Shown here one piece after another: positions 1 to 27,900 of a stretch of 46,501 nt of DNA. Origin of the DNA: an uncultured Elusimicrobium sp. (GTDB taxonomy: Bacteria; Elusimicrobiota; Elusimicrobia; Elusimicrobiales; Elusimicrobiaceae). The notes below the pieces were generated by a model, which was not told where the DNA came from, did not search any database, and saw only the letters and a list, made by a program, of their open reading frames with translations. Where the stretch lies: the NCBI GenBank assembly GCA_947305555.1, contig CAMZDW010000005.1:1-46501 (forward strand), written 5' to 3'. Position 1 is the first letter of the stretch; every line of letters starts with the position of its first letter. Made by a program: the position numbers and the translations under genes.

Positions 1-1436
1 TCTGCTTGGTTGGCGCAATCCTTTTCTTCTTTCTTCTTCTCAACTTCGTCGACATACCATTCAGCACAATACTTGCTCATACTTTGTGCTTGGTTGGCGT
101 AGGAAGGAAGGTCGCAATTCACAGTTTCAGGAATCTGAATTGTACCGCACTTACCTTGGTAGCTATTCAGTGTAGTCTGCAATTTCCCATACTGGTTTTT
201 CATCTCCTTGCACGTCATCTGAATAGACTCAAAAGCCTCACGATATTTATCTTTGGAGCTATCATATTCCCAAACATCCTTGCACGTCGTAGGGAGTTTC
301 TCCCCAACACTGCGAATCTTGCTTCTCATATTTTTAATTTCTTTGGAGTAATCCTCATTAAAAGCATCGTTCCATGCTGTCTTACACTTTTCATCCAGCT
401 TCAAGTAATCGTCCACGTGTTTTAAATCTCTAATAACGTCTTCCGGGTTGATCCCAATACCGGAAAACCCATTCACCGTAAAAACCGTGCGTGGCAAATT
501 AGCACCGTTAAAACCGGCGGCCGCCAACGTTTTCTTTAATCCCGGTTCACGCGCACGCCGAGCGGCACGACCTGTCAACCAAGCCCAATACAAATCGCGA
601 AAAGCTTTATCCCCGCCTACTTGCCTTAACTTCCCTAAACCGGCCGCCAAACCTCGCCCTTCCAAAAAATTTCTCAAACCATCCATTTGGGCATCTTGCG
701 AAATGGCTTTATTCACCGTGCGCATAAACCAATCACTGCCGGAAGAAGAGCTACCCGCGCTCCCCAACGGGGCATTGGCCACTTTTTTAAGTATTTTGGT
801 GGAATTATATCCATCGCGTTTATCGCGAGGAATGACATTGGAGTCCGCCCCGAAATACACATCCCCTATTTGTGAACCATTAGCATCTGTATTGACAGAA
901 ATTTTATCCGTATTTAATGAGATTCCCTCACTTTTCTCTCGTTCATCCCGGATATCCCGGCCGGAGGAACCTACCACTTGCACCGCACCACGCCCTTGTT
1001 GACGACGCGCGGAATTAGTAGCCTTAATGTTCAACAATCCGCTCTTTCGGCGATTTGCGTTGTTTTGTCCGGCTGCCCTGGCGGCCTCCTCCGCCAATGA
1101 AAAAACGGAGAGTTCGTTCGGGTCCGGGATTTCGCCCTGTAACATTTTATTATGCTCTTTCCAGGAAAACAACGCTTGAAACAGCGAAAAACGCATGGTT
1201 TCCTCAGGGGAGTAACCCATAGCGTATACTAAATTGCGTAATAAAGGGATTCTTCCTACCGGGACGAGTGTTCCACCAGCCAACAAAAAAAGCAAGATCG
1301 CTAACATTAACCACTTTCGTTTGGAACGTAGCGTATCCGGCAAATTCCGCTTGGCCCGCTGTTTTTCCTCCGGTTGTGGAGGGAGCTGGGGCAACGAGGT
1401 TTCTTTTTCTTCCGGTAATGGTTTCAAGTCGGGCAT
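1..1436 (-). CDS. Unknown membrane-anchored protein, C-terminus beyond window edge
   Basis: I do not recognise this gene. It is open from the ATG at 1436 to the left edge without a stop, giving at least 478 residues. The start is supported by AGGGA six bases upstream. The N-terminus is Pro/Glu-rich and charged, followed by one membrane segment at about residues 39-57 (LMLAILLFLLAGGTLVPVG), so the bulk probably lies outside the cytoplasm. The middle is Ser/Gly/Arg-rich and low in complexity. The last ~120 visible residues become Lys/Glu-rich, probably helical, with about eight cysteines at spaced positions (TTCKD, MTCKE, GKCGT, VNCDL, KYCAE, KDCAN), which would suit disulfides. It is the last visible gene of a five-gene run starting at 6102, separated from its neighbour by a GC-rich hairpin. 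The visible part carries no enzyme motif. That the gene is real is fairly sure; its function is unknown. Confidence 0.72.
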   Translation of the reverse strand, partial: MPDLKPLPEEKETSLPQLPPQPEEKQRAKRNLPDTLRSKRKWLMLAILLFLLAGGTLVPVGRIPLLRNLVYAMGYSPEETMRFSLFQALFSWKEHNKMLQGEIPDPNELSVFSLAEEAARAAGQNNANRRKSGLLNIKATNSARRQQGRGAVQVVGSSGRDIRDEREKSEGISLNTDKISVNTDANGSQIGDVYFGADSNVIPRDKRDGYNSTKILKKVANAPLGSAGSSSSGSDWFMRTVNKAISQDAQMDGLRNFLEGRGLAAGLGKLRQVGGDKAFRDLYWAWLTGRAARRAREPGLKKTLAAAGFNGANLPRTVFTVNGFSGIGINPEDVIRDLKHVDDYLKLDEKCKTAWNDAFNEDYSKEIKNMRSKIRSVGEKLPTTCKDVWEYDSSKDKYREAFESIQMTCKEMKNQYGKLQTTLNSYQGKCGTIQIPETVNCDLPSYANQAQSMSKYCAEWYVDEVEKKKEEKDCANQA

Positions 1437-1463
1437 ATATCATCCCTAATTTTTTACAACAGA

Positions 1464-1488
1464 CCCCGGGAAAAGATTTTCCCCGGGG
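1464..1488 (-). terminator. GC-rich hairpin between two module genes
   Basis: A strong inverted repeat (CCCCGGG-AAAA against TTTT-CCCCGGGG) lies 15 bases past the stop of the gene ending at 1503 and 28 bases before the next ATG. There is no uridine run right after the stem in the transcribed direction, so it may be a partial terminator, an mRNA stabiliser or a processing site rather than a full stop. Confidence 0.45.
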
Positions 1489-1502
1489 CCGGAAAATAAA
1501 TC

Positions 1503-3050
1503 TTACTTCTTCTTTGTTGTGGTACTGCTTGTACTGCTTCCGCCACCGCTCACAGCACTCTTGACGGCACTCGTTGCCGCTCCTGCAGCAGCAGCCTTGG
1601 CACCTTTCAGTGCCAGCTTGTTAACTTTGGGCATAATCTTGGCCATCCACTTTCCTAAACCGGATGCCTTATTGAGCATAGCCGAGATTCCTACAAAAGC
1701 CAAAGCGGCAATCGCCAAACCACCCACAATACAAGATATGGTGGACATCGCAGTTCCGGAGAATTCATTTGCAAATTTCGCCGCTTTAACAATAAGCGTA
1801 GTGGCTACGGCCGCCGCAGCGGCAAGAACAGCAAACCCGGCCACAATCATGACAATGCCCCAAGGACCTGGCTTTGCTTTACCGGCAGTAATTAAAGCAT
1901 ATCCAGCAATTGCCCCCGCAACCATAGACGCTAAAGTGATTAGCAACCATTTGCCCAAATCATCGCTTTTCTCTTGGCGCTTATCAGCATCCTCATCTAT
2001 GTTTTCTTTAAAGGCCTGTAATTTTTTGAGGTTATTCGTGGTGGGAGTTTTAAAATCAGCCGAACTGGTTGTTCCCACTTCCACGCCATTCTCAATCGTC
2101 ATACCACCGGAATTGCGGCTAGACCCTAAGAATGCGTACATCCCTTCCATAGCTGATTTGTGAGAATTAGCCGCGGCATCCGCAGAACGTTTGGCAATAT
2201 CCGGCAAATCTCCCTTCCCGGGAGTACGTCTGCCGGCAGAAGATGTACCCTGTCGGCCTCTAGCCATAAAAGTAGAGGGTCCGTTCGCGGAACGGCCTCT
2301 GCCGCCATCCCCTCTCAAAGCAGGCACGGCACTGCTACTGCCGGCCATAAGACCTGTGAAATTATAATTACTACCATTGGAGGACCCACCGTTTCTACCT
2401 CCGGCAGAACGGCTATTTCCCCCCATTGAACCGGCTGCGGCGCCAAAGGCATTTCCGGAAGCACGAGCCATAGATGCCGAAGGCAATTGCCCCCCCGCAC
2501 CTTTTGTTTTCGCCGGTCCACCTGAACCAGATGCTTGCCCAGCAACCGCATCCGTTGTGAGTCTAGCCGCTGAAGAGGCCCGTTCCGAAGCTGCAACCTG
2601 TGGGCTGTAGTCCACACCCGAATCAACGAGTGTCGCTTTATTGCTTCCTAAGCCTAACCCATCGCTCTCACCCGTTGCGGCAGCGGCGCCTAAACGTCCG
2701 CCGGTGAGGCGACCTTCTAACCTGTCTATGTTATCCAACCCAAAATTGTTAGAGGAAGCACTCCTATTTCCCATCCGTTCAAGATCGTCCTGATTAGCAA
2801 TTTGGTGCCGGCTGTCCTGCACGTTAATAGAGGTCAACCCTCTGTGGGAACGTTGCATCCCTTCATAGGTAAACGGGTCAGAAATGGAAGTGACCGAGCG
2901 GACAGCTAACTCTTTCTTGCTCTGATTAATCCCTACGTTATAGAACAAAGTAGTCGCCCCAACCCCAATCGCGGCGGACGTTATTAATACGTTTTGGGCA
3001 TTCATGACTAACTTGCCCGACTTGCTTTTTAAGAAAGATAGCCACTTCAT
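1503..3050 (-). CDS. Unknown Gly/Ser/Ala-rich membrane protein, paralog of the gene at 3350-4963
   Basis: An unrecognised 515-residue protein. A basic N-terminus (KSKSGKLVMNAQN) leads into a membrane segment near residues 20-42, then ~300 residues of Gly/Ser/Ala/Arg-rich low-complexity sequence with RG-type stretches (GDGGRGRSANG, ARGRQGTS). The C-terminal third has three or four hydrophobic, Ala/Gly-rich segments beginning at GKWLLITLASMVAG, then a Lys/Ala-rich tail ending in Ser/Thr and Lys. It matches the protein at 3350-4963 in plan and in short blocks: an SGK motif before the first membrane helix, GLGLGSN against GLGLMSN, NSGGMTIENG against ISGGLRIESE, and KFANEFSG against SFANKYGG. AGGAGAA precedes the ATG. 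Its ATG overlaps the stop of the 97-residue gene upstream. Low complexity would hamper homology searches; no function is assigned. Confidence 0.8.
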   Translation of the reverse strand: MKWLSFLKSKSGKLVMNAQNVLITSAAIGVGATTLFYNVGINQSKKELAVRSVTSISDPFTYEGMQRSHRGLTSINVQDSRHQIANQDDLERMGNRSASSNNFGLDNIDRLEGRLTGGRLGAAAATGESDGLGLGSNKATLVDSGVDYSPQVAASERASSAARLTTDAVAGQASGSGGPAKTKGAGGQLPSASMARASGNAFGAAAGSMGGNSRSAGGRNGGSSNGSNYNFTGLMAGSSSAVPALRGDGGRGRSANGPSTFMARGRQGTSSAGRRTPGKGDLPDIAKRSADAAANSHKSAMEGMYAFLGSSRNSGGMTIENGVEVGTTSSADFKTPTTNNLKKLQAFKENIDEDADKRQEKSDDLGKWLLITLASMVAGAIAGYALITAGKAKPGPWGIVMIVAGFAVLAAAAAVATTLIVKAAKFANEFSGTAMSTISCIVGGLAIAALAFVGISAMLNKASGLGKWMAKIMPKVNKLALKGAKAAAAGAATSAVKSAVSGGGSSTSSTTTKKK

Positions 3051-3340
3051 AAGTTATTCTCCTTTTTTCTAAGACTATCTACAGCGTTTGTAGTACTGCG
3101 ATTTAATTTTTCTTCTATCCTTCGTTGGTCAAAAGAAGCAACTCGGCGTGAACGCTCTTCTTGCTGTTTTCGCATTTGTTGTATACGCGCGATCTCTGCT
3201 TCGTCGGCTTTGACTATCGAATGTAAATAAAACGCTCCTGCTACCCAAACTAAAAATAATACAATCAATATTCCCCGAAGAATGAACTCCATCCTTGGAG
3301 TTAAATAGGAAGGCCTTTCTATTTTAAACGGATTTTCCAT
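3047..3340 (-). CDS. Small single-span membrane protein with charged coiled-coil tail
   Basis: A 97-residue protein of unknown family. One membrane helix (about residues 19-42, FILRGILIVLFLVWVAGAFY) follows a short basic cytoplasmic start. The rest is strongly charged (Glu/Arg/Lys/Gln) and likely a helical coiled coil, as in many small scaffold proteins of envelope machines. AGGGGA lies upstream of the ATG. It overlaps the next gene by four bases (ATGA), so the two are almost surely translated together. It sits between the two paralogous Gly-rich membrane proteins, which suggests it is a partner of one or both. Function is inferred only from position. Confidence 0.75.
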   Translation of the reverse strand: MENPFKIERPSYLTPRMEFILRGILIVLFLVWVAGAFYLHSIVKADEAEIARIQQMRKQQEERSRRVASFDQRRIEEKLNRSTTNAVDSLRKKENNL

Positions 3341-3349
3341 AAGTTTCCC

Positions 3350-4963
3350 CTATTGATTTTCTCCGGATTTCACGTTCACATTTTCCAATTCCGGGTTCTC
3401 AATTACAGCATCTTTCGTCATCTCGTTAGCAAACCATGCGCCTCCTAAACCCAGGATCGGTCCGGCCGTTAGGTACAACCACGATTTCATGTTAGCAAGC
3501 ATAGCACTAACCCCGGGAATGAAAGCCGCCCCTACACCGGCACTTAATGTGGCACTAATCGCCATCCCCCACGTAGACACCGGGGCTCCGCCATACTTAT
3601 TTGCGAAGCTTGCACTCTTAGCCAACAACACAATATTTGGAATGAGCGCAATCACAGCAGCTGCAGCCGCTAATCCCCAAGCCACAGCACTGACAAACGG
3701 AATTCCCATACGGCCGATTGTAGCAAAAGCCCCAATCAGCGGAATCATCATAACAGCCAAGGGCACGGCAATCCAGGTCCATTTACGGATGGTATCGTAA
3801 TCTTTTTTGCGTTCTTCCATCTGTTGTGTAGTATCACTATCCGTCGCCCATTTCTGGACACCACGCAACTGAGCGGACGTCTCATTACTAAAATCTTTTG
3901 AACTGTGGTTTTGTCCGGTTACTAAATTTTCTGATTCAATGCGCAAACCACCGGAAATACGGGTATTGGAAATGAACGGAGCCATCCCACTATTGGCGGC
4001 GCGAGTCTTCGTTGCCGCTACTTTGTTTGACATCTTTGCTATGTATGCCAGCTCACCCATTTGTTTAGATTTACTAAGGCTCGGGCCTGCCTGTACACTG
4101 GCGTTGCGGCTCTTGCCCAAACTATCCTCTCCAAACGAGGATTTCGCTCGCAACCGAGCTCCTTCCAACGCGGCACCCATCTGCTCTTGGGCAGAGTTTA
4201 ACACGTTGTTTGCCTGTGCCATCTCCGCGGCAGAGGTAGCGCCTCCTCCTTTGTTGCCACCGTGTGAACCCACCGAAGTAGAATTAAATCCTTTGCTTCC
4301 AGAACCGGCTGTGGCCATTTTAGCTTTCTGTAATTTCCCAAGAGTTGGTTGCTCTTCTTTCCCTTTTTCGCCCCCCTCTCTTTGCCCGGCGCCTGCGCCT
4401 GCCTCGGCATTCGCCGCCTGCTGTTGTACTTGGGACATCAAACCTTGCATATTTCCCATGGTTTTTGCCATGGCAGCCATCGGATCGTCCGCACCGGGTA
4501 ATGCATTCCTTTCATTGGCGACGTTCGACATCAAACCAAGCCCTTCTGTTTCCCCACCCTGGTAGGCTGTTGGCGTATTTCCTGTGGAGCGCGCCACAGA
4601 GTTACGAGTCGATTCTTCGTACTCCTCCATTTCATCACGCACTTGCGCTTGACGGGCAGACTCTCCCAAAAGTCTTATGTTTTTGGGGTCCACTCGCACC
4701 GCCGACTCGCTGACAACTTGGTCTCCCTGCCCGGAAGTATACGAGATCCGTTCGTATTTTCCACTATTGGGATTACCCGCTACATAAACGATTTCGCCCG
4801 GATTATAGGACGAAGGATTATAAGAGGATTCTTCCGCCGGAGAGCTAAGGAAATTCCAAGCTCCTACCCCGGCTACTCCCACTACAGTGGCAATACCCGC
4901 TGCCTGCAAAGCAGACAGGGCCATTTTGCCACTTCGGTTTCTAAGCCAATTTAAAATATTCAT
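3350..4963 (-). CDS. Unknown Gly/Ala-rich multi-spanning membrane protein (tandem paralog)
   Basis: A 537-residue protein. I chose the ATG at 4963 because GGGAGG lies seven bases upstream; an in-frame TTG six codons earlier is less likely. The N-terminus (NRSGKMALSALQ) leads into a membrane helix near residues 17-36, then a Tyr/Asn/Ser stretch, a long Ala/Gly/Gln/Met-rich middle with probable helical parts, and four hydrophobic segments near the C-terminus starting at RKWTWIAVPLAVMM. The tail after the last span is short and acidic. It shares several motifs and the overall plan with the gene at 1503-3050, so the two arose by duplication. No catalytic motif is visible. The multi-spanning end suggests a channel, anchor or membrane platform, but that is speculation. 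Confidence 0.8.
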   Translation of the reverse strand: MNILNWLRNRSGKMALSALQAAGIATVVGVAGVGAWNFLSSPAEESSYNPSSYNPGEIVYVAGNPNSGKYERISYTSGQGDQVVSESAVRVDPKNIRLLGESARQAQVRDEMEEYEESTRNSVARSTGNTPTAYQGGETEGLGLMSNVANERNALPGADDPMAAMAKTMGNMQGLMSQVQQQAANAEAGAGAGQREGGEKGKEEQPTLGKLQKAKMATAGSGSKGFNSTSVGSHGGNKGGGATSAAEMAQANNVLNSAQEQMGAALEGARLRAKSSFGEDSLGKSRNASVQAGPSLSKSKQMGELAYIAKMSNKVAATKTRAANSGMAPFISNTRISGGLRIESENLVTGQNHSSKDFSNETSAQLRGVQKWATDSDTTQQMEERKKDYDTIRKWTWIAVPLAVMMIPLIGAFATIGRMGIPFVSAVAWGLAAAAAVIALIPNIVLLAKSASFANKYGGAPVSTWGMAISATLSAGVGAAFIPGVSAMLANMKSWLYLTAGPILGLGGAWFANEMTKDAVIENPELENVNVKSGENQ

Positions 4964-5016
4964 ATTTGAACCTCCCACCAAATTTGTTCACCTTCTGAAA
5001 AATCTTAATAAGCGAA

Positions 5017-6102
5017 TTAATCTCCCACATCTTTAGCTTTGTCGTCAGACCCACCGCTAGAGGATTTTGCTTTTCCAATATGCCAATCGCCGTTGTTAAG
5101 CCCTCTATCCAAATAGGAAGTAGCAAAATTTACCACTCCATTTATTAACCCCTGCAAAGCACCTTGCCACAATTTATCCCAAAAACTAAGTTGTTCCTCT
5201 TGCTTTTTCTTGTCTTCTTCTGCTTTTTTCGCTTTGTCATTAATGCTACTTTCGGCATCCGTCAAATCCGGCGTTGCCATACTTGGAGAAGAGATTGGAG
5301 CATTCGTATCCAAGGTTAAACCTTTGGTAATGTCCAGTTCGACTCCCTGACCGCCAAAAGCTTCACTCCCCTTTACTTCGCCTCCCATCATTGCCCTTTT
5401 AGCGTTACCGGATTTTCCTTCCTTAAACGCTGCGGCAGCCTTACTGGCTTGTGCAAACTGAGAAAGTGATTTCTTCGCATCATTCGTTTTTAGTTGGGGA
5501 GGAGCAGTAATTTCCTTCCCTTTATCTTGGCTTTTCCATGGGGAGAAGTCTCCTTTTGGTGCTCCCCAAGTACTATTTACACCGCCCCCACTGGCACGCC
5601 CGGCATTGGCGGAACCCAGTTGCTTAATCTCGGTTTTAGTACCACCGCCCTGACGGCCCCTATAATTACGACCACCATAGTTTCGGCCGCCATATCCTTC
5701 AGAAGAATCTCTGGCAGTAACGCGAGATCCGCCCCCAAAAGAAGTCGTCGATTCTTCTTCCTCTTCTTCCTCTTCCTCTTCGGCGTCCTGAGCATCCTGT
5801 GCCTGGCGAGCCGCCTTTTCTTCCGGAGAGTATAAGGCGGAGGCTTGATTGTCTTTCATATCCGGGTATTGGGAAGCTAACAAATAAGCCTCGGATTCAT
5901 CATTCAAAAAAGGCATTTGGGCCAAATCATATTGTTGGGTAGATAAGCCATCAAAAGAAGTATCATCTGCATCCCCCATCATAGAGGAAATTGTTAAAAG
6001 TGCCACAAATAAAACGATTACAATCGCGCCCAAGGTATATGCTTGTTTGCGATCCATCTTTTTGATTTTCTCAACCACATTCCCGGATTTTAATTTAAAC
6101 AT
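5017..6102 (-). CDS. Unknown single-span membrane protein with acidic and RGG-like tracts; first gene of the module
   Basis: A 361-residue protein of unknown family. A basic N-terminus precedes one membrane helix (about residues 23-43, TLGAIVIVLFVALLTISSMM), so the long remainder should be periplasmic by the positive-inside rule. After the helix come a YPDMKD segment, an uninterrupted run of about ten glutamates near residue 112, and a Gly/Arg/Tyr repeat (YGGRNYGGRNYRGR). A Lys/Ala-rich linker follows, then a more ordered C-terminus with an amphipathic stretch (SFWDKLWQGALQGLINGVVNFATSYLDRG). AAGGGG precedes the ATG. It is first behind the consensus promoter at 6192-6220, so it heads the transcription unit of the five unknown genes. 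The sequence suggests an extended, flexible envelope protein rather than an enzyme. Confidence 0.8.
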   Translation of the reverse strand: MFKLKSGNVVEKIKKMDRKQAYTLGAIVIVLFVALLTISSMMGDADDTSFDGLSTQQYDLAQMPFLNDESEAYLLASQYPDMKDNQASALYSPEEKAARQAQDAQDAEEEEEEEEEESTTSFGGGSRVTARDSSEGYGGRNYGGRNYRGRQGGGTKTEIKQLGSANAGRASGGGVNSTWGAPKGDFSPWKSQDKGKEITAPPQLKTNDAKKSLSQFAQASKAAAAFKEGKSGNAKRAMMGGEVKGSEAFGGQGVELDITKGLTLDTNAPISSPSMATPDLTDAESSINDKAKKAEEDKKKQEEQLSFWDKLWQGALQGLINGVVNFATSYLDRGLNNGDWHIGKAKSSSGGSDDKAKDVGD

Positions 6103-6191: not shown

Positions 6192-6220
6192 AGTATAGGT
6201 AGAAAAAAACCTTTTGTCAA
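6192..6220 (-). promoter_or_regulatory. Sigma-70-type promoter for the five-gene unknown module
   Basis: Read on the minus strand, TTGACA (6215-6220) and TATACT (6192-6197) are separated by exactly 17 bases, a near-perfect housekeeping promoter. Transcription would start near 6185, leaving an ~80-base leader before the ATG at 6102. The leader contains a small hairpin, TGGCT-GAAA-AGCCA. This makes the module independent of the Tad genes upstream. Confidence 0.75.
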
Positions 6221-6321: not shown

Positions 6322-6873
6322 TTACGACCGTCCTTCCGGACGTTCGTAGGGAGCCGGGCGATCGTTATGACCTACATATTTAATAACTGATATTTCGCCC
6401 CCGGTTTCACATAAGAAATTGTACCCTTTTAAACAAATATTATCGTGTTCACACACCTGGTCTTTGTCGTAATTACACAAAAAACGGATACGGGGAGCCT
6501 TCGTACGCGCGGTGATGGTAATTTGAGTCCAAGTACCGCTTCTATTGACGTCCATTTTTACGCTATCCAAACTTAAAAATTTTTTCATATTCGGGTTATC
6601 AAAACCCAAGTAATTTTCCATTTTCTGTTGGATATCTTTGATCAAAAAACGGCGATCCCAAGTGCGCTGATAGTAATCCGTCTCGTGCGACTGAAGCTGG
6701 AAACGCTGCCCTACATAATAGCCGGCAATTTCCATTTTCTGGCTCAGTACCAGCAAGCCAAAAATTTTAATAATAAATAAAATGAAAATGACAAAAAACG
6801 GGAACAACAACACAAGTTCGGTTGTAGTCTGCCCTCGGCGCGAATGAAAAAGGTGTTTGCTCCAATTAATCAT
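6322..6873 (-). CDS. TadE-like minor pseudopilin
   Basis: A 183-residue protein with the TadE N-terminal signature: a basic leader ending RRGQ, then QTTTELVLLFPFFVIFILFIIKI, with Glu at position +5 after the predicted G|Q cleavage site. In Tad systems TadE-type pseudopilins are matured by the prepilin peptidase and are needed for pilus formation. The rest is a soluble domain with four cysteines near the C-terminus (FLCNYD, QVCEHDNICLK, FLCET). I chose the ATG at 6873 because its first bases overlap the stop of the TadG-like gene (ATGA), implying coupled translation; a GTG 14 codons earlier is less likely. It is the last gene before the intergenic promoter region. Confidence 0.8.
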   Translation of the reverse strand: MINWSKHLFHSRRGQTTTELVLLFPFFVIFILFIIKIFGLLVLSQKMEIAGYYVGQRFQLQSHETDYYQRTWDRRFLIKDIQQKMENYLGFDNPNMKKFLSLDSVKMDVNRSGTWTQITITARTKAPRIRFLCNYDKDQVCEHDNICLKGYNFLCETGGEISVIKYVGHNDRPAPYERPEGRS

Positions 6874-8072
6874 GGTCGTAATACAATATTGTACTTCGGC
6901 AACGGGTTTGGCCACACGCAGTTATTGCCATTGCGTAGGCACGAAACTATGATTTTGTTGCGAACGTACGGTTTATATTTTTGTTCTAAATTAAGATTAA
7001 AACGGTTGCGCGGCAATTTAAATCGTTGCTTTAATAGAACGCCACGTTGTAAAGTACGTAACCGCCCGATGCTGGAGGGATCCAAGTAGGCAAATTGAAA
7101 TAATTTTTCGCCACTTAGAACGTCCCCAGGTACATTTAACGTAACATCAATTTCTCCACCGTGTGAAGATCCCCCACGCCCTTCCTTTCCCCCACTGGAA
7201 AAGAAAACTTGAATTTTCTCTATTTCAAACGGATGAGTAGCGATGGAAAAGAAGGGACGCAGTTTAGCTGCACTTTCCCGGGCACAATCGTTCATTTTAC
7301 AATTGTCCACATTCAAAAAATAGGTTTCCCGGAACATAATGGCATTCTTGGTAAGGTCCTTATACACCATGTCCTGGGATTTATAAATCGAACTGGTATA
7401 AATGTAAGTCTTTAAATAATCCACTAAGACGGTAGTTCCAAAACCTTGATAAGGGAAATGGTAATTTCTCACTAAATGTTTACTAATTAAACGGACAGGG
7501 GTGTTCCCCGGCAATGTTGGATTCTCTTTTTCCCAATCGTCACGAGAAACTATTACCTGCTGCCTGCCATTATCAGCAGTAGCCTCTTCTTGTTCCCGTA
7601 TATCCGTAATCTCTTCACCCATTGCATAAAATGCCTTCCAGTTGACAGACTCCGGCTTGGGGCGATAATTGGCAGTTCGTGCATCTTTATCTCCCTCCAA
7701 CGTAACAAATGCCCCACTCTGGTAAAAAAATTCAAATAAGTTTAAGTTCTCTTTTTCATTTTCATATTTGCCCCCAGCCCGGGGTTCCAGCGTCATACTA
7801 CCGTCTTGCGAGTTTCCATAGTACCGCATGACACGATAGGGCGTTGGGCCATTAATCATAGCCATAACGTTTAAATACGTGGTGAGTGAAGACATCTGAG
7901 TATAGGCTGCATTGTCCAGCGCGAATTGGTGACGCACTTTCGCCATGGAGACTTTGGCCGTTTCCAACAATAAGTAAATAACCAGTATGAAAATAGGCGC
8001 CAGCAAGATCGCCGGTAACAAAATCTGTGCCCGACGTTCCTGTAGTTTACGGGAGCAATAACCTATTCGCAT
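6870..8072 (-). CDS. TadG-like pilus-assembly protein
   Basis: A 400-residue protein with a TadG/TadE-like N-terminus: a basic start followed by RRAQILLPAILLAPIFILVIYLLLETAKVS, one membrane helix at about residues 18-37, then a helical amphipathic region (ALDNAAYTQMSSLTTYLNVMAMI). The remainder is an extracytoplasmic domain without recognisable catalytic residues. Unlike the Flp and TadE proteins here it lacks Glu at +5, so it may not be processed. AAGGGAAAA precedes the ATG. It follows a Flp-like pilin and overlaps the TadE-like gene, giving a Flp-TadG-TadE cassette separated from the main Tad operon by the regulatory genes. Naming it TadG rests on its N-terminus and position; the long C-terminal domain is not one I recognise. 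Confidence 0.68.
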   Translation of the reverse strand: MRIGYCSRKLQERRAQILLPAILLAPIFILVIYLLLETAKVSMAKVRHQFALDNAAYTQMSSLTTYLNVMAMINGPTPYRVMRYYGNSQDGSMTLEPRAGGKYENEKENLNLFEFFYQSGAFVTLEGDKDARTANYRPKPESVNWKAFYAMGEEITDIREQEEATADNGRQQVIVSRDDWEKENPTLPGNTPVRLISKHLVRNYHFPYQGFGTTVLVDYLKTYIYTSSIYKSQDMVYKDLTKNAIMFRETYFLNVDNCKMNDCARESAAKLRPFFSIATHPFEIEKIQVFFSSGGKEGRGGSSHGGEIDVTLNVPGDVLSGEKLFQFAYLDPSSIGRLRTLQRGVLLKQRFKLPRNRFNLNLEQKYKPYVRNKIIVSCLRNGNNCVWPNPLPKYNIVLRP

Positions 8073-8087: not shown

Positions 8088-8270
8088 TTAGGACGTAATT
8101 ACACGACCAATAAATTGAAAAAAGAAACGCACGATATGGGTGTGAAACGCTGTCAAAAAGGCAGAAATCACCAACACGATAGAGGCGAGTAATAAAATAT
8201 ACTCTACCGTAGCTTGACCTTTCTTCTTGGACATAACTCGCCCAAGTGCGTTACAACCCTTTTTCCACAT
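8088..8270 (-). CDS. Flp-like pilin (third copy, downstream cassette)
   Basis: A 60-residue protein with the Flp signature KKKGQATVEYILLLASIVLV. Cleavage at G|Q would leave Glu-Tyr at +5/+6, as in Flp pilins matured by TadV/CpaA-type peptidases. The mature chain is one hydrophobic helix with a short aromatic/basic tail (FHTHIVRFFFQFIGRVITS). The ATG follows directly on the stop of the response-regulator gene; an internal ATG at 8234 would give a more usual short leader and is a reasonable alternative. It lies immediately after the regulatory genes and before the TadG/TadE pair, so it may be a minor pilin or a pilin used under other conditions. Confidence 0.8.
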   Translation of the reverse strand: MWKKGCNALGRVMSKKKGQATVEYILLLASIVLVISAFLTAFHTHIVRFFFQFIGRVITS

Positions 8271-12054: not shown

Positions 12055-13011
12055 TTAGCAACTACCGGCAGGAGCTTGCGCCGCCGCACCGGATCTAGCA
12101 GCATTTGGATTTAAAAATCCAAAACCCTCTATTTTGGAAGCGGAGCCAAAATCCAACTGAACTTTTCCTTCAAACAAGAAAGTCGGAGAAGCATTCACTC
12201 CATATTCTTTACCGTAAGCGGCTTCTTGCTTTAAGAGTTCAAGACCTTCGGTATCGAATTTTTTCATAATTTTTTTTGCATTGATACCGGCATCTTCCAT
12301 CGCCTTATCCCAACGGCTGGAACGGTAATCTTTGTTGCGAATTTCTAAATACTTCCATAATTTTTCCGGGTAATATTTCGCAATTAATAATTGACGAACA
12401 TCTTCTTCCCATTCCCCGGAACCATGCAAGCTGCTAAAGCCTTTATCCTCGTTGTAATCTACAATGTAACGAATATGTACGTTATTAGCTTTGGGGGATT
12501 TTCCCTCTTTTTTTGCTTGAATTACCGCATTTTCAGCCATGACCCCATAAGGGCACTGGGACATTACAAAAATTTCCATAATCCCCGGTTTAGCGGTTTT
12601 CTCGGAGTAAACGCCTTGACGTGTTTGATGCGGCAAAATCACATATTCGTCATTTTCTTGTACGTAACCATATTGAATATGCTTCTCGAATTTGGAGCGA
12701 ATATCCGGGGTTTTTTTAACCAGATACAACGGTAAGAAACTATAATCTAAATTAGCCAATTTTTCATCAGCCTTTGCCACAGAGTAAGGCATATGCGTAA
12801 CTTCCGGCTCCACATTCAAGAACTCAGCCAAACCCATTGTCAGCTGTTTATCTTCCTTACCGGCTTCATAAGCCTCATCTTCTACTATAATAAAACTAGC
12901 TTTTACTTTAGCAGGAGCTTTTTTAGTAGAAGTCGCTTTGGTGGTAGAACCCCCCGCAAAAGCGAAACCAGCTAAAGCAATCGCTAAACATAAACTAATA
13001 ATCTTTTTCAT
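12055..13011 (-). CDS. Exported thioredoxin-fold (DsbA-like) protein with CPYG motif
   Basis: A 318-residue protein with a signal peptide (MKKIISLCLAIALAGFAFAG) and a Lys/Ala/Thr-rich linker. A first half of unclear fold is followed by a thioredoxin-like domain at about residues 143-300. This holds MSQCPYGVMAE with Cys153, and the cis-Pro loop as NASPTFLFEG. The second active-site cysteine of CxxC is Gly here, so it is a monothiol variant that may bind or reduce partners rather than oxidise them. The protein ends in a cysteine. It is the last gene of the main Tad operon, four bases after a small membrane protein, in a locus with unusually cysteine-rich exported proteins, so a role in folding those is plausible. 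The exact family is uncertain. Confidence 0.75.
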   Translation of the reverse strand: MKKIISLCLAIALAGFAFAGGSTTKATSTKKAPAKVKASFIIVEDEAYEAGKEDKQLTMGLAEFLNVEPEVTHMPYSVAKADEKLANLDYSFLPLYLVKKTPDIRSKFEKHIQYGYVQENDEYVILPHQTRQGVYSEKTAKPGIMEIFVMSQCPYGVMAENAVIQAKKEGKSPKANNVHIRYIVDYNEDKGFSSLHGSGEWEEDVRQLLIAKYYPEKLWKYLEIRNKDYRSSRWDKAMEDAGINAKKIMKKFDTEGLELLKQEAAYGKEYGVNASPTFLFEGKVQLDFGSASKIEGFGFLNPNAARSGAAAQAPAGSC

Positions 13012-18465: not shown

Positions 18466-20808
18466 CTAAGCAGCAGGTGCTGCCGGTGGGGCCGGAGGCA
18501 CATCTGATGCTGTTGAGGCTGCTGAACCCGATTTTTGATGTTGCAATTCTTTTACTGCAGCTAAATCCGGCTCTCCATTCTCATCTAAGGGAACAGCCCC
18601 TTTCGTAAATACATTTTCATCCACCGGCTGCCCTTTGGCTGCAAATTCATCATAGAAAGTCGGCAAATTGCCCGTAGGCGCAAAGACGCCTTGTACTTTC
18701 CCGTTTTCATCTACTCCGGTCTGCACGTAGCGGAACAAATCCGTAGATTGAATTTGCCCATCCTTTTGCCCGTGCATCTCCGTAATATAAGTTACTTTAC
18801 GGGAACCATCCGAAAAACGCGAAAGCTGTACGATCATGTTTACAGCCGAAGAAATCATTTCCCGGATAGCAAAAATTGGTAAATCAGCCCCAGTCTGCAT
18901 GCACATTGCTTCCAAACGAGACAGTCCATCACGTGGGGTATTGGCGTGAATCGTTGTCAAAGACCCTTCGTGACCAGTGTTCATAGCCTGTAACATGTCG
19001 AGTGCTTCTCCACCACGACACTCCCCGACTACAATTCGGTCCGGACGCATACGCAAACAGTTCTTTACTAAATCTTGAATGGTAATGGCCCCCTTTCCTT
19101 CTACGTTTGGCGGACGGCTTTCCAGCGACACCCAGTGCGGTTGTTGCAAACGAAGTTCCGCGGTATCTTCCACCGTAATGATACGTTCATCATCCGCAAT
19201 ATAACCGGAAATAGCATTTAAGAAGGTTGTTTTACCGGTACCGGTACCACCGCAAACGATAATGTTTTTGCGGATTTTAACACATTTCTTAATAAATTCC
19301 ATACATTCCGGGCTAATTGTACCAAACCGGTAATAATCTTCCGGCCCGAACGGTTTTGAAGAGAAACGACGAATCGTCAACGTTGGCCCCGAAACCGCCA
19401 ACGGTGCAATAATAGCGTTTACACGGGAACCATCTTTCAAACGAGCGTCCACCAGCGGTACTGATTCGTCAATACGACGACCCAAGGGCGCCACAATACG
19501 TTTAATTACTTGTACCACTTGTTCGTTATTTCTAAATTTGTATTTAGTGAGAGTCAACTTACCTTTTTGTTCGATAAAAATCTTATCAAAGGCGTTGACC
19601 ATAATTTCGGTAACGGCCGGGTCGCGCATTAATACTTCCAGTGGCCCCAAGCCCAAAATTTCATCTAACAATTCGGAGGTAAACCGAGTTCTCTGATCAC
19701 GTGAAAATTGCAAGTTGGGCTGCTTTTGTAGAATATCATCTACAATCGCCGCTACCCGCTTACGTGTTTGCGCACTGGCAGTGCTTTCATCACTGATAAC
19801 AATGTGTTCAATTTCCAGGGCGTGTACCACTTCTTTATGAATTTTTTGTTTCAAATCGTCCCAGAAAGACATTTTTGTCTTTCCACGTTCGTCTTCCCCT
19901 TCCACAGCTACGTGATCCGTGCCGCCTCCGCTTCCTTTTCCATCATCAAATAAAATAGGCGACCAAATATCTTTTGCGGCTTGCGTAAACTCTTCATCCG
20001 ATACAGAAGCTTGCCAATCTTTGGGAGCCGGTTTTAAATCGCGGATTTTAGCAAGTACCAACCGCAATCCTTTGACCCACTCCGATTGAGGATTGGTAAT
20101 AATTTCCACTTCTCGACGGTTAGATGTGGCCATGACATCTTCATCCCAAGGGAGGAAAACATCTACTTCACGCTCCAACTCAGAATAAAAGCGCTCCATT
20201 TCTTCGTAGGGAATAGACCCAGGCATATCATAACCGTTACAAATGACGCTCACGCGGTCCATTGGATAACGTTGTGCTTTATAATCGTTAAAAAGTTGTA
20301 CGGTGGAATTAATATGCGTACGGGTTGCATTGGATACCCAGAAAATTTTGTCCGCAATATCAAAAGCAAACGCCTGCATTGGGAAACTAGAATCCACATC
20401 TAAGAAAATATCAAATGTCTGAGATAAACGAGATAAAATCGGAATTAAAATCTTAGGACTAATCGCCGCCACTTGAGCCCGGTTATTTCCTAAAGGCAGC
20501 AAACCTACGCCCCATTGCGACATGGAAATTTTTCCACGTAGCAATCCCCCCACCACGGCAATAGAAGTGTTACCCAATACTTGCAACAAATCCGCCACAC
20601 TAACGGGTTTTTGAATATCTAAATAAAAACTATGTTCTTGACGAGCCAAAGGATCTAACGGAACAATGAGCACCGGCCTTTTTTGAATACCGGCCCAGCC
20701 CAACGCCAAATTTAATACAAGCGTAGTTTTACCGGCTCCTTCCTTAGGACCAGTAAAAGCAATAATCTTTGCATTACTCTTTTGTTCTTCGTTATTTTCT
20801 TCAGCCAT
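18466..20808 (-). CDS. CpaE-CpaF (TadZ-TadA) fusion: MinD-like ATPase joined to secretion ATPase
   Basis: A 780-residue fusion. Residues 13-260 form a MinD/ParA-like domain with deviant Walker A GPKEGAGKTT (signature Lys22, Lys27), equivalent to CpaE/TadZ, which places Tad machines in the cell. A Gly/Asp-rich linker at about 283-312 follows. Residues 313-735 form a complete CpaF/TadA ATPase: N-terminal helical domain (DEILGLGPLEVLMRD), Walker A GGTGTGKTTFL at 520-530, the Asp box (TVEDTAELRL), Walker B region (RPDRIVVGECRGGEALDML) and the His box (GHEGSLTTIHAN). The tail is Ala/Pro-rich. In characterised Tad loci these are separate genes. Met313 (ATG at 19870-19872) has GGAAAG six bases upstream, so a free CpaF might also be made. 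It sits directly between secretin and TadB. Confidence 0.93.
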   Translation of the reverse strand: MAEENNEEQKSNAKIIAFTGPKEGAGKTTLVLNLALGWAGIQKRPVLIVPLDPLARQEHSFYLDIQKPVSVADLLQVLGNTSIAVVGGLLRGKISMSQWGVGLLPLGNNRAQVAAISPKILIPILSRLSQTFDIFLDVDSSFPMQAFAFDIADKIFWVSNATRTHINSTVQLFNDYKAQRYPMDRVSVICNGYDMPGSIPYEEMERFYSELEREVDVFLPWDEDVMATSNRREVEIITNPQSEWVKGLRLVLAKIRDLKPAPKDWQASVSDEEFTQAAKDIWSPILFDDGKGSGGGTDHVAVEGEDERGKTKMSFWDDLKQKIHKEVVHALEIEHIVISDESTASAQTRKRVAAIVDDILQKQPNLQFSRDQRTRFTSELLDEILGLGPLEVLMRDPAVTEIMVNAFDKIFIEQKGKLTLTKYKFRNNEQVVQVIKRIVAPLGRRIDESVPLVDARLKDGSRVNAIIAPLAVSGPTLTIRRFSSKPFGPEDYYRFGTISPECMEFIKKCVKIRKNIIVCGGTGTGKTTFLNAISGYIADDERIITVEDTAELRLQQPHWVSLESRPPNVEGKGAITIQDLVKNCLRMRPDRIVVGECRGGEALDMLQAMNTGHEGSLTTIHANTPRDGLSRLEAMCMQTGADLPIFAIREMISSAVNMIVQLSRFSDGSRKVTYITEMHGQKDGQIQSTDLFRYVQTGVDENGKVQGVFAPTGNLPTFYDEFAAKGQPVDENVFTKGAVPLDENGEPDLAAVKELQHQKSGSAASTASDVPPAPPAAPAA

Positions 20809-20812
20809 ATAG

Positions 20813-21556
20813 TTACTCTACTACTTCAACCGTGATGAATAAGAACAGCGAACGTTGTTCCTCAGTGACATCCTTTGTTTTAAAGAATAAGCCAATGAGA
20901 GGCAAACGTCCTAAGAAAGGCACCCGGTCTTCCGCTACGTTACGTGAGCTGCTTTTGAGTCCACCAATGACTAAGGTTTCCCCACTGTTGAGTTCCACGT
21001 GTGTTTCTACTTCGCGGTTTGTGAACGAGGGAGCTGCTGCTGTACCAATAACAACCGTTCTGGAATAGTCTACAGATGAAACAGAAAGTTGTATTTGTAA
21101 ATCAATAATATTGTTACGTTCCGGAACAATCGTCGGAAGCACGCTTAATAAAATACCGTAATCTTCCAACTGAGAACCAATCCCTTGGTTGTTTACTACC
21201 GGGATCGGCACTTTTCCACCCACCGTAATCTTGGCTGCATTGCCCGACGAAGTGACAATCTTCGGGTTAGACAAAACTTGTGCCCGACCTTCTGTTTCCA
21301 TCAAACGCAAACGAGTTGCAACCGCGGTTTTACGTTCAAATTCACCTAAGGATAAAATCCCTGGAATGGAGGCTTCTTCAAAATCGAACATCGGGTTCCA
21401 CGAAAAACCCTTTACACTTTGCGATGTTCCACTAATTTCAACAACATCCGCACTCACGGCCACCAGACGCGTTTTCTTCGCCTGTGCCACGCTGGGGAAC
21501 AATATAATGCCCAGCAAAATTGTCAAAGATAGGTTAGTGATAAATTTTATCTTCAT
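20813..21556 (-). CDS. Minimal secretin (CpaC/RcpA-type barrel domain only)
   Basis: A 247-residue protein with a signal peptide (LSLTILLGIILFPSVAQA) followed almost at once by the secretin homology domain: ATRLRLMETEGRAQVLSNPKIVTSSGNAAKI, VGGKVPIPVV, LSVLPTIVPERNNIIDLQIQLSVSS, GETLVIGGLKSS and the signature VPFLGRLPLIGLFFKTK. CpaC/RcpA proteins are usually 400-500 residues with N-terminal ring (N0/BON-like) domains; these are missing. The outer-membrane pore part is complete, so it could still form a gate, with the ring function supplied by CpaB or the TPR protein. Four bases separate it from the ATPase gene. It could also be one half of a split secretin, but no other half is seen here. Confidence 0.88.
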   Translation of the reverse strand: MKIKFITNLSLTILLGIILFPSVAQAKKTRLVAVSADVVEISGTSQSVKGFSWNPMFDFEEASIPGILSLGEFERKTAVATRLRLMETEGRAQVLSNPKIVTSSGNAAKITVGGKVPIPVVNNQGIGSQLEDYGILLSVLPTIVPERNNIIDLQIQLSVSSVDYSRTVVIGTAAAPSFTNREVETHVELNSGETLVIGGLKSSSRNVAEDRVPFLGRLPLIGLFFKTKDVTEEQRSLFLFITVEVVE

Positions 21557-21567
21557 AGTTATCCTGT

Positions 21568-22116
21568 TTACTCACGAAATAATTTCTCCAAAGAAGCAAT
21601 TTCCATTACATCAGTTTCTTCATCCCCTGGCTGACGTAACACAAGATCTAGTTTTCCTTGTGTCAGGGCCACAGACAGGTATTGAGAATCTTTGGGTGAA
21701 AGGGCTAAAACGACGTAAGCATTTCCACCAACAGGACCCGTCAAACCTGCTCGTTGGGGCTGTTCTAAACCAACATCTAATACTTTAATATTCTGTAACA
21801 GTGTAACCGTTACATTTTCCTTCCTGCCATTTTTTAATTGAGCTTCAAAAGTCATTAAAACATCTACCTGATCATCCGCATCTATTGTTTGTGCAAATGC
21901 ATTAGGCAGACCCGGTATAATAAAGCCTCGCGATTGCAAAGGAACTTTTTCCGCCACCTTTTTCTTTTGCTTCGGAGCGTTCTCCTGCGAAAAAGAACTA
22001 GGCCGAGCCGTCTTCGGGCGATGAGACTTGGCAGACAAGAACGAAAATCCTGCCCAAATCATCACTCCCGCAATAACTAATAAAATCAATAAACTCAATA
22101 AACTCTTGTTCTTCAT
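21568..22116 (-). CDS. CpaB-like protein lacking the SAF domain
   Basis: A 182-residue protein with one N-terminal membrane helix (about residues 7-29), a Lys/Pro/Ser-rich linker and a RcpC/CpaB C-terminal domain: DADDQVDVLMTFEAQLKNGRKENVTVTLLQNIKVLDVG, then LALSPKDSQYLSVALTQGKLDLVLRQPGDE. It aligns with residues ~125-250 of the complete CpaB encoded just upstream (DDNVDVLLTFEANMRNGTREKVSITLLQNIKVLGVG), so it is a duplicate that has lost or replaced the SAF domain. It is not a broken fragment: it keeps its own membrane anchor, and the frame is intact. It probably forms a mixed CpaB assembly linking the platform to the secretin. Confidence 0.85.
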   Translation of the reverse strand: MKNKSLLSLLILLVIAGVMIWAGFSFLSAKSHRPKTARPSSFSQENAPKQKKKVAEKVPLQSRGFIIPGLPNAFAQTIDADDQVDVLMTFEAQLKNGRKENVTVTLLQNIKVLDVGLEQPQRAGLTGPVGGNAYVVLALSPKDSQYLSVALTQGKLDLVLRQPGDEETDVMEIASLEKLFRE

Positions 22117-22136: not shown

Positions 22137-22892
22137 TTACGACTGGAATAATCTACCAAACGTAGTTACGTCCGTAATGTGGGTCGTAACGTCCCCATGA
22201 GAGCGTAAAATAACGGAAATTACCCCTTCTTCCTGAGCAAGTGCCAAGTATTGTGCATCCTGTGGAGAAAGAGCCAAAGACAACGCCGAACTATCCGAGA
22301 AAGCAGCTTCTTCCTCTTCCTTGTTCTTCATAGCATTGGCAGTTTTCAAATCAATGCCTTGTCCTAAATTGGAACCAACCCCCAACACTTTAATATTCTG
22401 CAATAAAGTAATTGACACCTTTTCACGAGTTCCGTTCCGCATGTTCGCTTCAAAGGTTAACAGCACGTCCACATTGTCATCCGGCTTAATCATGTTGGCC
22501 GTCGACAAAGGAACACTGATGATGTAACCACGCATCTGCACCGGAATTTTACTCGAAAGCCCTGCTTCTGGAGATAACGAAGTAATCGCATACTTGGAAA
22601 TTTGGTTTCCTTTCGGGATTTGAATACGGGCCACTGCATTTTCAATAGCTTTAAAATCCGCATCAGTCGTATACGTGAATGCATCTTTTTGCAAGTACGC
22701 AGCGGGTACGGGCACCGGGCGAATAAGATCACGCTTAATTACTTCACGTTCTTTAATATCGCGAATAGGTACGAATACCTGCTTGATGCTCTTAGACGCA
22801 GTTAACTTTTTTTCCGCGCTACTAACAATCAATGCATAAACAATGGCTGCTAAAATAGCTACCACCAGTGGTAAGAAAATCCCTTTTTTCAT
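22137..22892 (-). CDS. cpaB: CpaB/RcpC pilus-assembly protein
   Basis: A 251-residue protein with an N-terminal membrane helix (about residues 5-24), a SAF domain (about 38-105, VFVPIRDIKEREVIKRDLIRPVPVPAAYL, RIQIPKGNQISKYAI) and the RcpC domain (about 110-245, DNVDVLLTFEANMRNG, LSLALSPQDAQYLALAQEEGVISVILRS). CpaB spans from the inner membrane to the secretin in Tad systems; the SAF domain is thought to touch peptidoglycan or pilin. GAGGAG precedes the ATG. Gene order Flp-TadE-CpaB-CpaB2-secretin-CpaEF fits a Tad locus. Confidence 0.92.
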   Translation of the reverse strand: MKKGIFLPLVVAILAAIVYALIVSSAEKKLTASKSIKQVFVPIRDIKEREVIKRDLIRPVPVPAAYLQKDAFTYTTDADFKAIENAVARIQIPKGNQISKYAITSLSPEAGLSSKIPVQMRGYIISVPLSTANMIKPDDNVDVLLTFEANMRNGTREKVSITLLQNIKVLGVGSNLGQGIDLKTANAMKNKEEEEAAFSDSSALSLALSPQDAQYLALAQEEGVISVILRSHGDVTTHITDVTTFGRLFQS

Positions 22893-24994: not shown

Positions 24995-27900
24995 CTACGG
25001 CACCAACACCTTGACTACTTTTTGGCAATGTTCGCGGCCATTTTTCGCTTTGAAATCTACAAGGCCGAAGTACACGCCACGGGCTACTTTTTTACCGTGT
25101 TGGTTAGTACGATCCCAGCGGCAGCGCAAGGCTGCGTTACGTTGAGACGGGAACAGATTCAAGTCTGCCTGCGTCATCTTCGTAGATCCGACTGGGTCGT
25201 TATCCGGGTTAAAGCTTAAGCTGCTACCCATCGTGGTTTGATAGTTATTGGCATCCACACAGGTATACCCACTATCGCGCACCAGGTCGCCTGCCAAGTT
25301 GAAGAACTTGATAGATACTTCACCCGGCACCGGCATCTTGGTAATTTCCAACGTACCGCGGTCGGCATTCTTTAACGGGTTGGGGTAGAAGAACACGGTT
25401 TTCTCCCAATCCGCGCAGACAAACCGTCCGTCGCCGATAGCAATGGTGGCTTTGTGCAAGTTTTGATACTCGTACGTATCGGCCACATAATTAATCTTGT
25501 TATCGGTGTTTCCGCTATCATTACCCGGAATAATTTCCCCGGTTACAGAATCGATATCGGCCGAGTTCAAGGCCGTTACGAAGCGGAACGGATAAGTTCC
25601 ATCAGGTACTTCCTGACCGGCATAGTCGGTTCCGTCCCACAATTCTTCAATTAAGGTTGTAGCCGGGCGGATACCCACAATGGATTTCACGAGTACATCG
25701 CGAATATTGGTCACTTCTGCACCCGTGGTGGGGTTACGCAAAGTACCTTTGGAGTAATCGTAAATGGTCGTTCCGGGTTTGAAAATCTGGATAGCGACTT
25801 TCATCGGCACGGACACCTGGTATCCAATACGCATATCAGTTCCGCGCACAGCGATAGAATAGCCATCAGCTTCCAAGAGGTCAAACACTTTTAAGAGGTC
25901 GGCGTTGAGCGTAATGCTCTTAACGGTAGCCTCATACAAATCCGGATTCGGATAGTTACGCGCCGTCAAGCGTACTTCGTAAATACCCGGTTTAACGTAA
26001 AAGCCGTTGTTGTCGGTTCCATCCCAGTAGATTTTGCGAATGACATTCGCATCAAAATTACTGGTATTGGCAATCGTCATCGTGGAGAGATACTTACACA
26101 CATCTCCGGCTTTATTGTCTCTCAAATCCGCATGAACTTCAGGATCGGGTGTACAAACTCCGGCTTGCAGCGCCACGATGGCTACTTCTACGATTGCAGC
26201 ACGGCTGACAGCGAAGTTAACCTCATAGGGCGGCACAAAGATTGGGCCGGAGGACACGTTAAACAGCTGCGGTGCATTGGGATAAACCACCGTAGAACCA
26301 TCCAAGAAATACACAGCGCCGCGGGTTACGTTGATTTTGCTAACGGGTTTTTCCGTAGCGTACCAGTAACTTTGCTGTTTAACTTCGCTTGCTTTCTTAA
26401 ACGGTTGTCCGGTTAAGGAGTAGTCGGTGTCGGTGTCGCTATCCTGGTTTGCATCATAGTAGTAGCGGCTAAAGGGCTCGTTCGATTTAGCCACAACAAA
26501 GAATGGATACTGCCCATCCGGCACCATTTCATACGGACAATCCGTTTTTTTGTTGTTGGGGCTGGTGCAGTTGGTCGGGTTGTTAAAGTACAAGGCATCC
26601 CATTCTTCCATGATGGTCAGGCCGTCTCCCGGCTTAGCAGCGCTGGAATCGACGGTTTCAATCGGTTGCAAGCGCACATTAATATTCGTAGCATCGTAGG
26701 ACGTCTTCGAGCTTGGATAGCTTGTAAAGCTGGTATCGTTTACGTAGATACACGCATGTTCAGCCGTCACTTTGCTCGGATCTACATGACCGTCAGTGGT
26801 GAAAATGGCATGATCCGTTGACTTATCGCAGATACGCGGCGGCCATACATCTGCCTTCCCGGTATCGCCTAATGAAACGGTAGCGGTTATCGTATACGGA
26901 TTTGCACCTGCAACTTTCCATGTAATTGTATACTTGGTACCGCCAATGGTCTGCTCTTCCGTTTTTGTTGATCCTGCAGTGAGCGTATTTTTATTGGTAA
27001 TTTCCACGTTCGTATTGGTACCGGGCAACGTGACCATCATCTTCACATCACCGGCAGTTAAAGCATTTGCCTTCGTAGTAGCCGTGGTTGAAGCACTCAC
27101 GACTCCGGAAAGCGTGTTGTAATCCGGGATGACTACATCCTTATTATAGATGTTAATCTGCACGTTCATGGATTTAGACAACTTATAAGAAATGGTGGCA
27201 CGCGCATTACTGTCTCCATACACATCCGTGGTGCTCAAATCTACCACGCGGTACAGATCCACCGGGAACACCGCTGCAGCGCGGCTGGTTACAGCCGGGA
27301 ACATGGCATCTTTCGTTTCTACCACAAACATATAGGTAGCCGGAGCAACCATGCGCCCTGCGTCATCACGTCCATCCCAAGAGATAGTGTTCATCTGTTG
27401 GGATACTTGTGTGATCCCTTCCATCGGCGTTAAGTGTTTCACCACCACACCGGCCGTATTTTCCACTTTAGCTACTACGTTAGCGTCACGCGCAATAGAA
27501 TATTTGAAAATGAACGGATCCAACCCATACGCGGTGGGGCTGGAACCTACCGTGGCATAACTAACCGGCTGGATGGTGATATCCACCGTCCCGCGGTCCA
27601 CCGATATTTCCCCGGTTGAATATTTTAAAGTTTTTACACCGGTAAAAGCGCGGTTATTGTAGGAGGTACCATCTTGTTGAGGACACTCGTTATTAGGTTC
27701 AAATGAAGGCTTTCTGTCTTCTGTAGCTCGCGCGTTATAATAACAACCGTTATACGGAATTTCCGCCCATAATACATAGACGTAGTTTCCGTCCGGCATG
27801 GGAGCACCGTAGGCAAATGTTTCTTCACAGCCTGCATTGAGAGCACAAATTTGTCCATTGGGTTGTTTCTCTCCTTTGGCATAGGTGCGGGTACACCCGG

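What the first reader, a model, noticed from the sequence alone, without database searches (positions are those of the whole stretch)
1..6102. Undescribed five-gene module of Gly/Ser-rich, membrane-anchored proteins
Five co-directional genes with no recognisable family: each has an N-terminal membrane helix and long low-complexity exported sequence; two also have a multi-spanning C-terminus, one is a 97-residue helix with a coiled-coil tail, and one ends in a spaced-cysteine helical region. They have one shared promoter and strong ribosome-binding sites. A set like this would suit a novel surface structure, scaffold or secretion accessory beside a Tad machine. This is the best candidate for an unknown system here.
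Basis: partly seen in the sequence, partly recalled or inferred. Interest (0 to 1): 0.8.

Follow-up and report, generated by a model that had tools for sequence, protein, structure and literature searches.

The report
Gut-Elusimicrobia membrane-anchored paralog module
Gut bacteria of one little-studied family (Elusimicrobiaceae) carry a conserved set of at least six membrane-anchored proteins unlike any described family, four of them remote copies of one another, which probably build a cell-envelope structure of unknown role.

Summary
The five genes are real: ribosome-binding sites, one near-consensus promoter, and relatives in the same order in dozens of genomes. Gene E runs off the contig. 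Another contig of the same genome overlaps the window start by 55 bp and carries the rest of E and a sixth gene, F (1,353 aa); in relatives a TPR protein follows.

No part except the TPR protein matches Pfam, NCBIfam, PHROGs or PDB sequences. All 71 loci of a genome-collection scan for F come from Elusimicrobia or unnamed MAGs, and the A profile stays within one family of the phylum. Two larger-genome members of that family have Tad but no detectable module.

A, B, D and F are remote paralogs: a membrane anchor plus an exported Gly/Ser-rich linker. A, D and F share a ~25-residue motif found nowhere else at significant scores in eight genus genomes. Membrane-near parts are conserved; distal parts are very variable.

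Tad adjacency is usual, not obligatory: the genome inferred to be Elusimicrobium minutum keeps all families at three loci far from Tad.

Best reading (inferred): a lineage-specific, inner-membrane-anchored heteromeric envelope scaffold carrying the large, variable protein F. Function is untested.

The parts
5017..6102 (-). Gene A (361 aa): short cytosolic N-terminus, one TM (about aa 24-42), exported conserved acidic segment, Gly-rich linker, shared motif, second conserved segment, amphipathic helix, variable tail
   Evidence: ORF and RBS; 21-row alignment; A-profile match in 57 of 58 genus genomes plus sister genera g12, g13, g14 in the phylum search
3350..4963 (-). Gene B (537 aa): N-terminal TM, long exported Gly/Ser/Ala-rich linker, multi-spanning C-terminus; paralog of D
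   Evidence: B-D profile comparison 100% probability
3047..3340 (-). Gene C (97 aa): one TM plus charged helical tail, poorly conserved in sequence
1503..3050 (-). Gene D (515 aa): weak N-terminal TM, exported linker with the shared motif, multi-spanning C-terminus
3..1436 (-). Gene E (478 aa in the window, 3' end cut by the contig end): cytosolic N-terminus, TM (aa 43-61), exported region ending in a helical region with six invariant Cys
   Evidence: continuation on contig C23 of the same genome, 55-bp overlap
6192..6220 (-). Promoter TTGACA-17-TATACT upstream of A
5563..5631 (-). Shared exported motif in A
2430..2501 (-). Shared exported motif in D

Best explanation
The genes encode a lineage-specific, inner-membrane-anchored, heteromeric envelope complex of gut-associated Elusimicrobiaceae. 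Four subunits (A, B, D, F) descend from one ancestral anchor: short cytosolic N-terminus, TM helix, exported disordered Gly/Ser/Ala linker with short conserved segments, then a membrane-active or distal module. That module is a variable tail in A, a membrane-spanning bundle in B and D, and a ~950-residue, Cys-containing, partly Ig-like ectodomain in F. E (TM plus helical cysteine region), C (TM plus helical tail) and a downstream TPR protein complete it. Shown here: the genes, conservation, paralogy, shared motif, conserved own promoter sequence, divergence that tracks neighbouring genes (vertical inheritance) and rapid distal divergence. Inferred: the subunits co-assemble through the shared exported segments; the module is a structural scaffold that holds F across or out of the envelope; F's variable distal part meets a variable partner (host, neighbour cell, phage or the species' own pili).
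For: Gene order A-B-(C)-D-(C)-E-F recurs across the genus. In the inferred E. minutum genome all families persist although scattered to three loci, with E-TPR-RsmA there matching F-TPR-RsmA in the genus: retention in spite of dispersal suggests a joint function. Profile-profile comparison: B-D 100%, A-D 93.5% over 282 columns, A-F 94.9% over 263 columns, against at most 0.4% for 15 column-shuffled controls per pair. An HMM of the A motif hits B/D and F proteins at the top of its list among 705 ORFs. A 28-position motif profile on 12 whole genomes gives, below E 0.01, only A, D and F genes of the module. Promoter conserved exactly in 32 of 34 genus loci, also where tad is not adjacent. F mean identity falls from 80% (N-terminus plus TM) through 61% (linker) to 24-38% (ectodomain), and A from 69% to 15%, while the neighbouring RR is 91% and HKrr 87%. 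Module divergence tracks the neighbouring genes (r 0.74-0.94). F's C-terminal ~380 residues are mostly predicted at pLDDT about 80-98.
Against: No physical interaction, localisation or phenotype is known. The shared linker could be inherited without a shared function. Low-complexity composition can inflate profile similarity (column shuffles keep composition but not local order). The motif was not found at threshold in the sister genera g12 and g13 by the A8 profile, though similar sequences can be read by eye in A and F there. Fast divergence could reflect weak constraint rather than an exposed surface. B/D and C relatives are weak or undetected by profile in several sister-genus genomes.
Confidence: 0.5

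Rival explanations
1. The module is an accessory of the adjacent Tad (Flp) pilus: it anchors, caps or tips the pilus or retools the Tad machine for secretion in gut Elusimicrobiaceae.
For: In 31 of 34 genus loci examined the module directly follows the TadE/F-like genes, also in several g12 genomes and in g14. 86 of 90 family genomes carry the Tad marker RcpC. The downstream TPR gene resembles PilW/Tgl-type TPR proteins, as all TPRs do.
Against: Own conserved promoter sequence. Not directly behind tad in L042, L046 and L096, or in several g12 genomes. Far from Tad in the inferred E. minutum genome. Two g15/g16 genomes have RcpC but no detectable A, E or F. No TadE/F/G, pilin or secretin domain in A-F.
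Confidence: 0.27
2. The module is an internal periplasmic system (cell shape, peptidoglycan or envelope maintenance), never exposed at the surface; its divergence reflects disordered linkers.
For: All anchors are inner-membrane type with cytosolic N-termini; near-consensus promoter; almost universal in the genus.
Against: F's distal domain is predicted to be folded yet diverges most, which fits an exposed partner better; no peptidoglycan-binding or hydrolase domain found.
Confidence: 0.17
3. A mere run of fast-evolving, low-complexity membrane proteins without a joint function.
For: Low sequence identity, Gly/Ser/Ala-rich linkers.
Against: Conserved order, conserved promoter, invariant cysteines in E, a shared specific motif, retention in sister genera.
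Confidence: 0.03

Closest known systems
Tad / Flp pilus (type IVc filament) locus
   Same: Usually encoded directly upstream on the same strand; inner-membrane proteins with exported parts; a TPR gene nearby
   Different: No TadE/F/G, Flp, RcpC, secretin or ATPase domain in A-F; own promoter sequence; not tied to Tad in the inferred E. minutum genome; undetected in two RcpC-bearing genomes of the same family
Envelope-spanning secretion or adhesion complexes with VirB10- or TonB-like single-TM subunits (resemblance from general knowledge only)
   Same: Short cytosolic N-terminus, one TM, long extended exported linker, distal folded domain
   Different: No sequence family match and no energising ATPase or secretin within the module
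TPR pilotin-like proteins PilW/Tgl/TadD (for the downstream gene only)
   Same: TPR repeats; likely exported; PilW and Tgl models hit at low E-values
   Different: Scores are well below the curated cut-offs (112 against 154; 63 against 225 bits), as expected for generic TPRs

Membership tests
Tad pseudopilins / minor pilins (TadE, TadF, TadG, Flp) | TadE (PF07811) or class III signal (PF04021) domain at the N-terminus | tested here: not met
   Neither family listed for A-E at E up to 1 or for F; both found in the neighbouring genes 6322-6915 (TadE, below cut-off) and 8088-8270 (PF04021)
Tad pilus system | Obligate genetic linkage or co-occurrence with Tad core genes | tested here: inconclusive
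   Adjacent in 31 of 34 genus loci, but separate in the inferred E. minutum genome and in several others; RcpC present in g15/g16 without A, E or F; no near-complete module-positive genome without RcpC was found
Tad pilus system | Biochemical association of A-F with the pilus machine | not testable with these tools
   Needs an experiment
Any Pfam-A / NCBIfam / PHROGs family (A-F) | Profile match above the curated cut-off, or a credible E-value | tested here: not met
   Pfam (A-E and two F copies), NCBIfam, PHROGs; best PHROGs hits are weak (C to Rz-like spanins E 0.002, F to an unnamed family E 8e-4)
Known solved structures | Sequence-profile match to a PDB chain | tested here: not met
   No match better than E 0.16 for A, B/D, E or F profiles
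Known folds (E, F ectodomain) | Structural match of the predicted model to a solved fold | tested here: inconclusive
   E: best Z 6.2, rmsd 3.8, 116 aligned, among unrelated helical bundles. F: best Z 6.6, rmsd 3.9, 105 aligned (beta-galactosidase), with many Ig-like domains tied at Z 5.5-6.1 over about 380-580; its C-terminal domain was barely tested
PilW/Tgl/TadD-type TPR pilotins (downstream TPR gene) | Score above the equivalog cut-off | tested here: not met
   PilW 112 against 154 bits, Tgl 63 against 225

The most novel reading that the evidence does not exclude
A new kind of trans-envelope machine, specific to host-associated Elusimicrobiaceae, that assembles by means of a genome-unique docking peptide shared by three paralogous membrane anchors and presents a hypervariable, Cys-containing ectodomain (F) at the surface as a receptor or adhesin for host, neighbour cell or phage.
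Probability: 0.22. Interest if true: 0.75.

Novelty: categorically new. Interest (0 to 1): 0.52.

Why it matters
The module is nearly universal in a genus of animal-gut bacteria with few cultured relatives, has a strong conserved promoter sequence, and is made of protein families with no known relative. It was not detected in two larger-genome members of the same family or in other families of the phylum, so it is a candidate for what distinguishes the gut lineage. The paralogous-anchor design with a shared exported motif gives direct handles (motif mutation, co-purification, topology mapping) in a cultured species. 'Categorically new' here means that no known kind fits the parts; whether the assembled function is new is not shown.

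Tried and rejected
Known-family assignment: Pfam, NCBIfam, PHROGs and PDB sequence profiles gave nothing for A-F. Non-canonical pilins: considered and rejected, because by eye A-F lack a prepilin motif in front of the hydrophobic stretch and they lack TadE or class III signal hits. A second conserved exported segment in A (motif 2) used alone as an HMM found no significant cross-family hit, so only the full-length profile comparison and motif 1 are used for paralogy. E and C showed only TM-level similarity to the paralogous set and are not claimed as members. Structure models: E mean pLDDT 69, F ectodomain mean 76; fold searches gave only middling, non-specific matches, and the absence of a clear match is not evidence of a new fold. 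B/D profile search in sister genera found little, although HMM hits to adjacent ORFs exist. Literature searches found no description of these genes; [quoted passage not shown] Many subscription papers, including the E. minutum genome paper as far as I recall it, did not come up in the library.

Full report
1. What was checked. The window is the whole of contig 5 of a 1.36-Mb, 60-contig, about 80%-complete genome. Relatives named by an organism-labelled scan are uncultured Elusimicrobiaceae, Elusimicrobiales or Elusimicrobium MAGs, many with animal-gut sources in their titles, and Candidatus Avelusimicrobium. Each has a purine-rich Shine-Dalgarno-like sequence; A, B, C and E have a clear N-terminal hydrophobic segment and D a weaker one; B and D have several C-terminal spans. 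Upstream, on the same strand, are two TadE/F/G-like genes, a pilin with a class III signal, a response regulator, kinases and the Tad machine.

2. The module extends beyond the window. E is cut by the contig end. Contig 23 of the same genome ends in a 55-bp exact overlap with the window start and carries the C-terminus of E and F, a 1,353-aa protein. In relatives F follows E in the genus loci that extend far enough, then a ~580-aa TPR protein and RsmA/KsgA in loci read that far. The genus order is A-B-C-D-E-F, or A-B-D-C-E-F in a divergent clade; extra copies of D (L049) and C (L095) occur.

3. Distribution. The A profile matched 57 of 58 genus genomes in the phylum search and genomes of sister genera g12, g13 and g14, but none outside this family among 295 genomes of the phylum. 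F matched 80 of 90 family genomes. Two same-family genomes with 2.2-2.3 Mb (g15, g16) have the Tad protein RcpC but no A, E or F match. A scan of 84,980 species genomes for F returned 71 loci, all titled as Elusimicrobia-type organisms or 'uncultured bacterium'; that scan starts from two short peptides, so very remote relatives could be missed.

4. Dispersal in another genus. Genome G090 is one contig of 1,643,562 bp; I infer from this size (recalled, not tested) that it is Elusimicrobium minutum. There A, a B/D relative and a C relative are together at 711 kb, F is at 646 kb, E is at 772 kb followed by a TPR gene and RsmA, and the Tad locus is at about 1.30 Mb. So the parts persist without being tied to each other or to Tad. 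The E-TPR-RsmA order there matches the F-TPR-RsmA order in the genus, which makes the TPR protein a likely member.

5. Paralogy. With 32-46 sequences per family, profile-profile comparison gave B-D 100%, A-D 93.5% (282 aligned columns) and A-F 94.9% (263 columns), against at most 0.4% in 15 column-shuffled controls per pair. A-B directly is weak (12%), so B joins through D. In A, D and F the alignment includes a motif of the form (P/A)T-x-(I/V)-x-x-L-x-S-A-(S/G)-(M/L)-x-x-A-S-G-x-G, at about residue 150-200 in each. An HMM built from A alone put B/D and F proteins at the top of its hit list among 705 ORFs. A 28-position profile searched on 12 whole genomes gave, at E below 0.01, only A, D and F loci of the module in the eight genus genomes; the next hits (E 0.04-0.5) were a short frame with a stop, a degenerate B copy and one unrelated frame. 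The profile does not reach threshold in g12, g13 or g16 genomes, though related strings can be read in A and F of g12 and g13. E and C are not shown to belong to the paralogous set.

6. Expression unit. TTGACA-17-TATACT occurs at 6220-6192, 89 nt upstream of A, and the same sequence with the same spacer lies upstream of A in 32 of 34 genus loci, including three (L042, L046, L096) where the module does not directly follow the tad genes. The generic scan finds no excess of promoter-like sites in the region (8 found, 11.2 expected), so it is the conservation that makes this one credible.

7. Evolution. Over 11 genus loci mean identity is 91% (RR), 87% (HKrr), 75% and 57% (TadE/F-like genes) but 30-44% for A-F. 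F falls from 80% at the N-terminus and TM, through 61% in the linker, to 24-38% in the ectodomain; A falls from 69% to 15%. Module divergence correlates with that of the neighbouring genes (r 0.74-0.94), consistent with vertical inheritance. One F (L042) carries a long Gly-rich, collagen-like insertion.

8. Structure. The E model (40 sequences) has mean pLDDT 69 and a confident helical region at about 335-525 holding the conserved cysteines. The F ectodomain model (39 sequences) has mean pLDDT 76; the last ~380 residues are mostly predicted at about 80-98, and residues 380-580 resemble Ig-like sandwiches at middling Z. No match stands out, so fold membership is inconclusive.

9. Interpretation. 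Shown: real genes, a conserved set, a paralogous core, a shared specific motif, a conserved promoter sequence, divergence in step with neighbouring genes, a conserved inner part and a variable outer part. Inferred: an inner-membrane-anchored heteromeric scaffold whose subunits associate through shared exported segments and which carries F outward. Whether F reaches the cell surface and whether Tad pili are involved are open. The Tad-accessory reading is the main rival; adjacency favours it, while dispersal, the own promoter and Tad-positive genomes without the module count against an obligatory link.

Noticed in passing
window 18466-20808 (-): The Tad ATPase gene encodes 780 aa with an N-terminal ParA/MinD-like (CbiA) domain followed by T2SSE: it looks like a TadZ-TadA fusion; the relative in the inferred E. 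minutum genome is 742 aa.
   Followed up: no
window 20813-21556 (-): The Tad secretin gene is only 247 aa, about two thirds of it the secretin core domain, so it lacks most N-domains; the relative in G090 is 248 aa.
   Followed up: no
window 21568-22116 and 22137-22892 (-): Two adjacent RcpC/CpaB-like genes; nearly all other family genomes show one.
   Followed up: no
window 24995-29677 (-): A 1,560-aa protein with a FlgD-type Ig domain and a weak CHU_C (type IX secretion signal) match at its C-terminus.
   Followed up: no
window 12055-13011 (-): A 318-aa gene without Pfam match, conserved beside the Tad/kinase genes across the genus (mean identity 64%).
   Followed up: no
L075-L077 (g12 genomes): Gene A is present as two tandem, diverged copies while only one B/D-like gene is detected.
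   Followed up: partly
L042:985-5205 (-): This F copy carries a long Gly-rich collagen-like insertion in its ectodomain.
   Followed up: no
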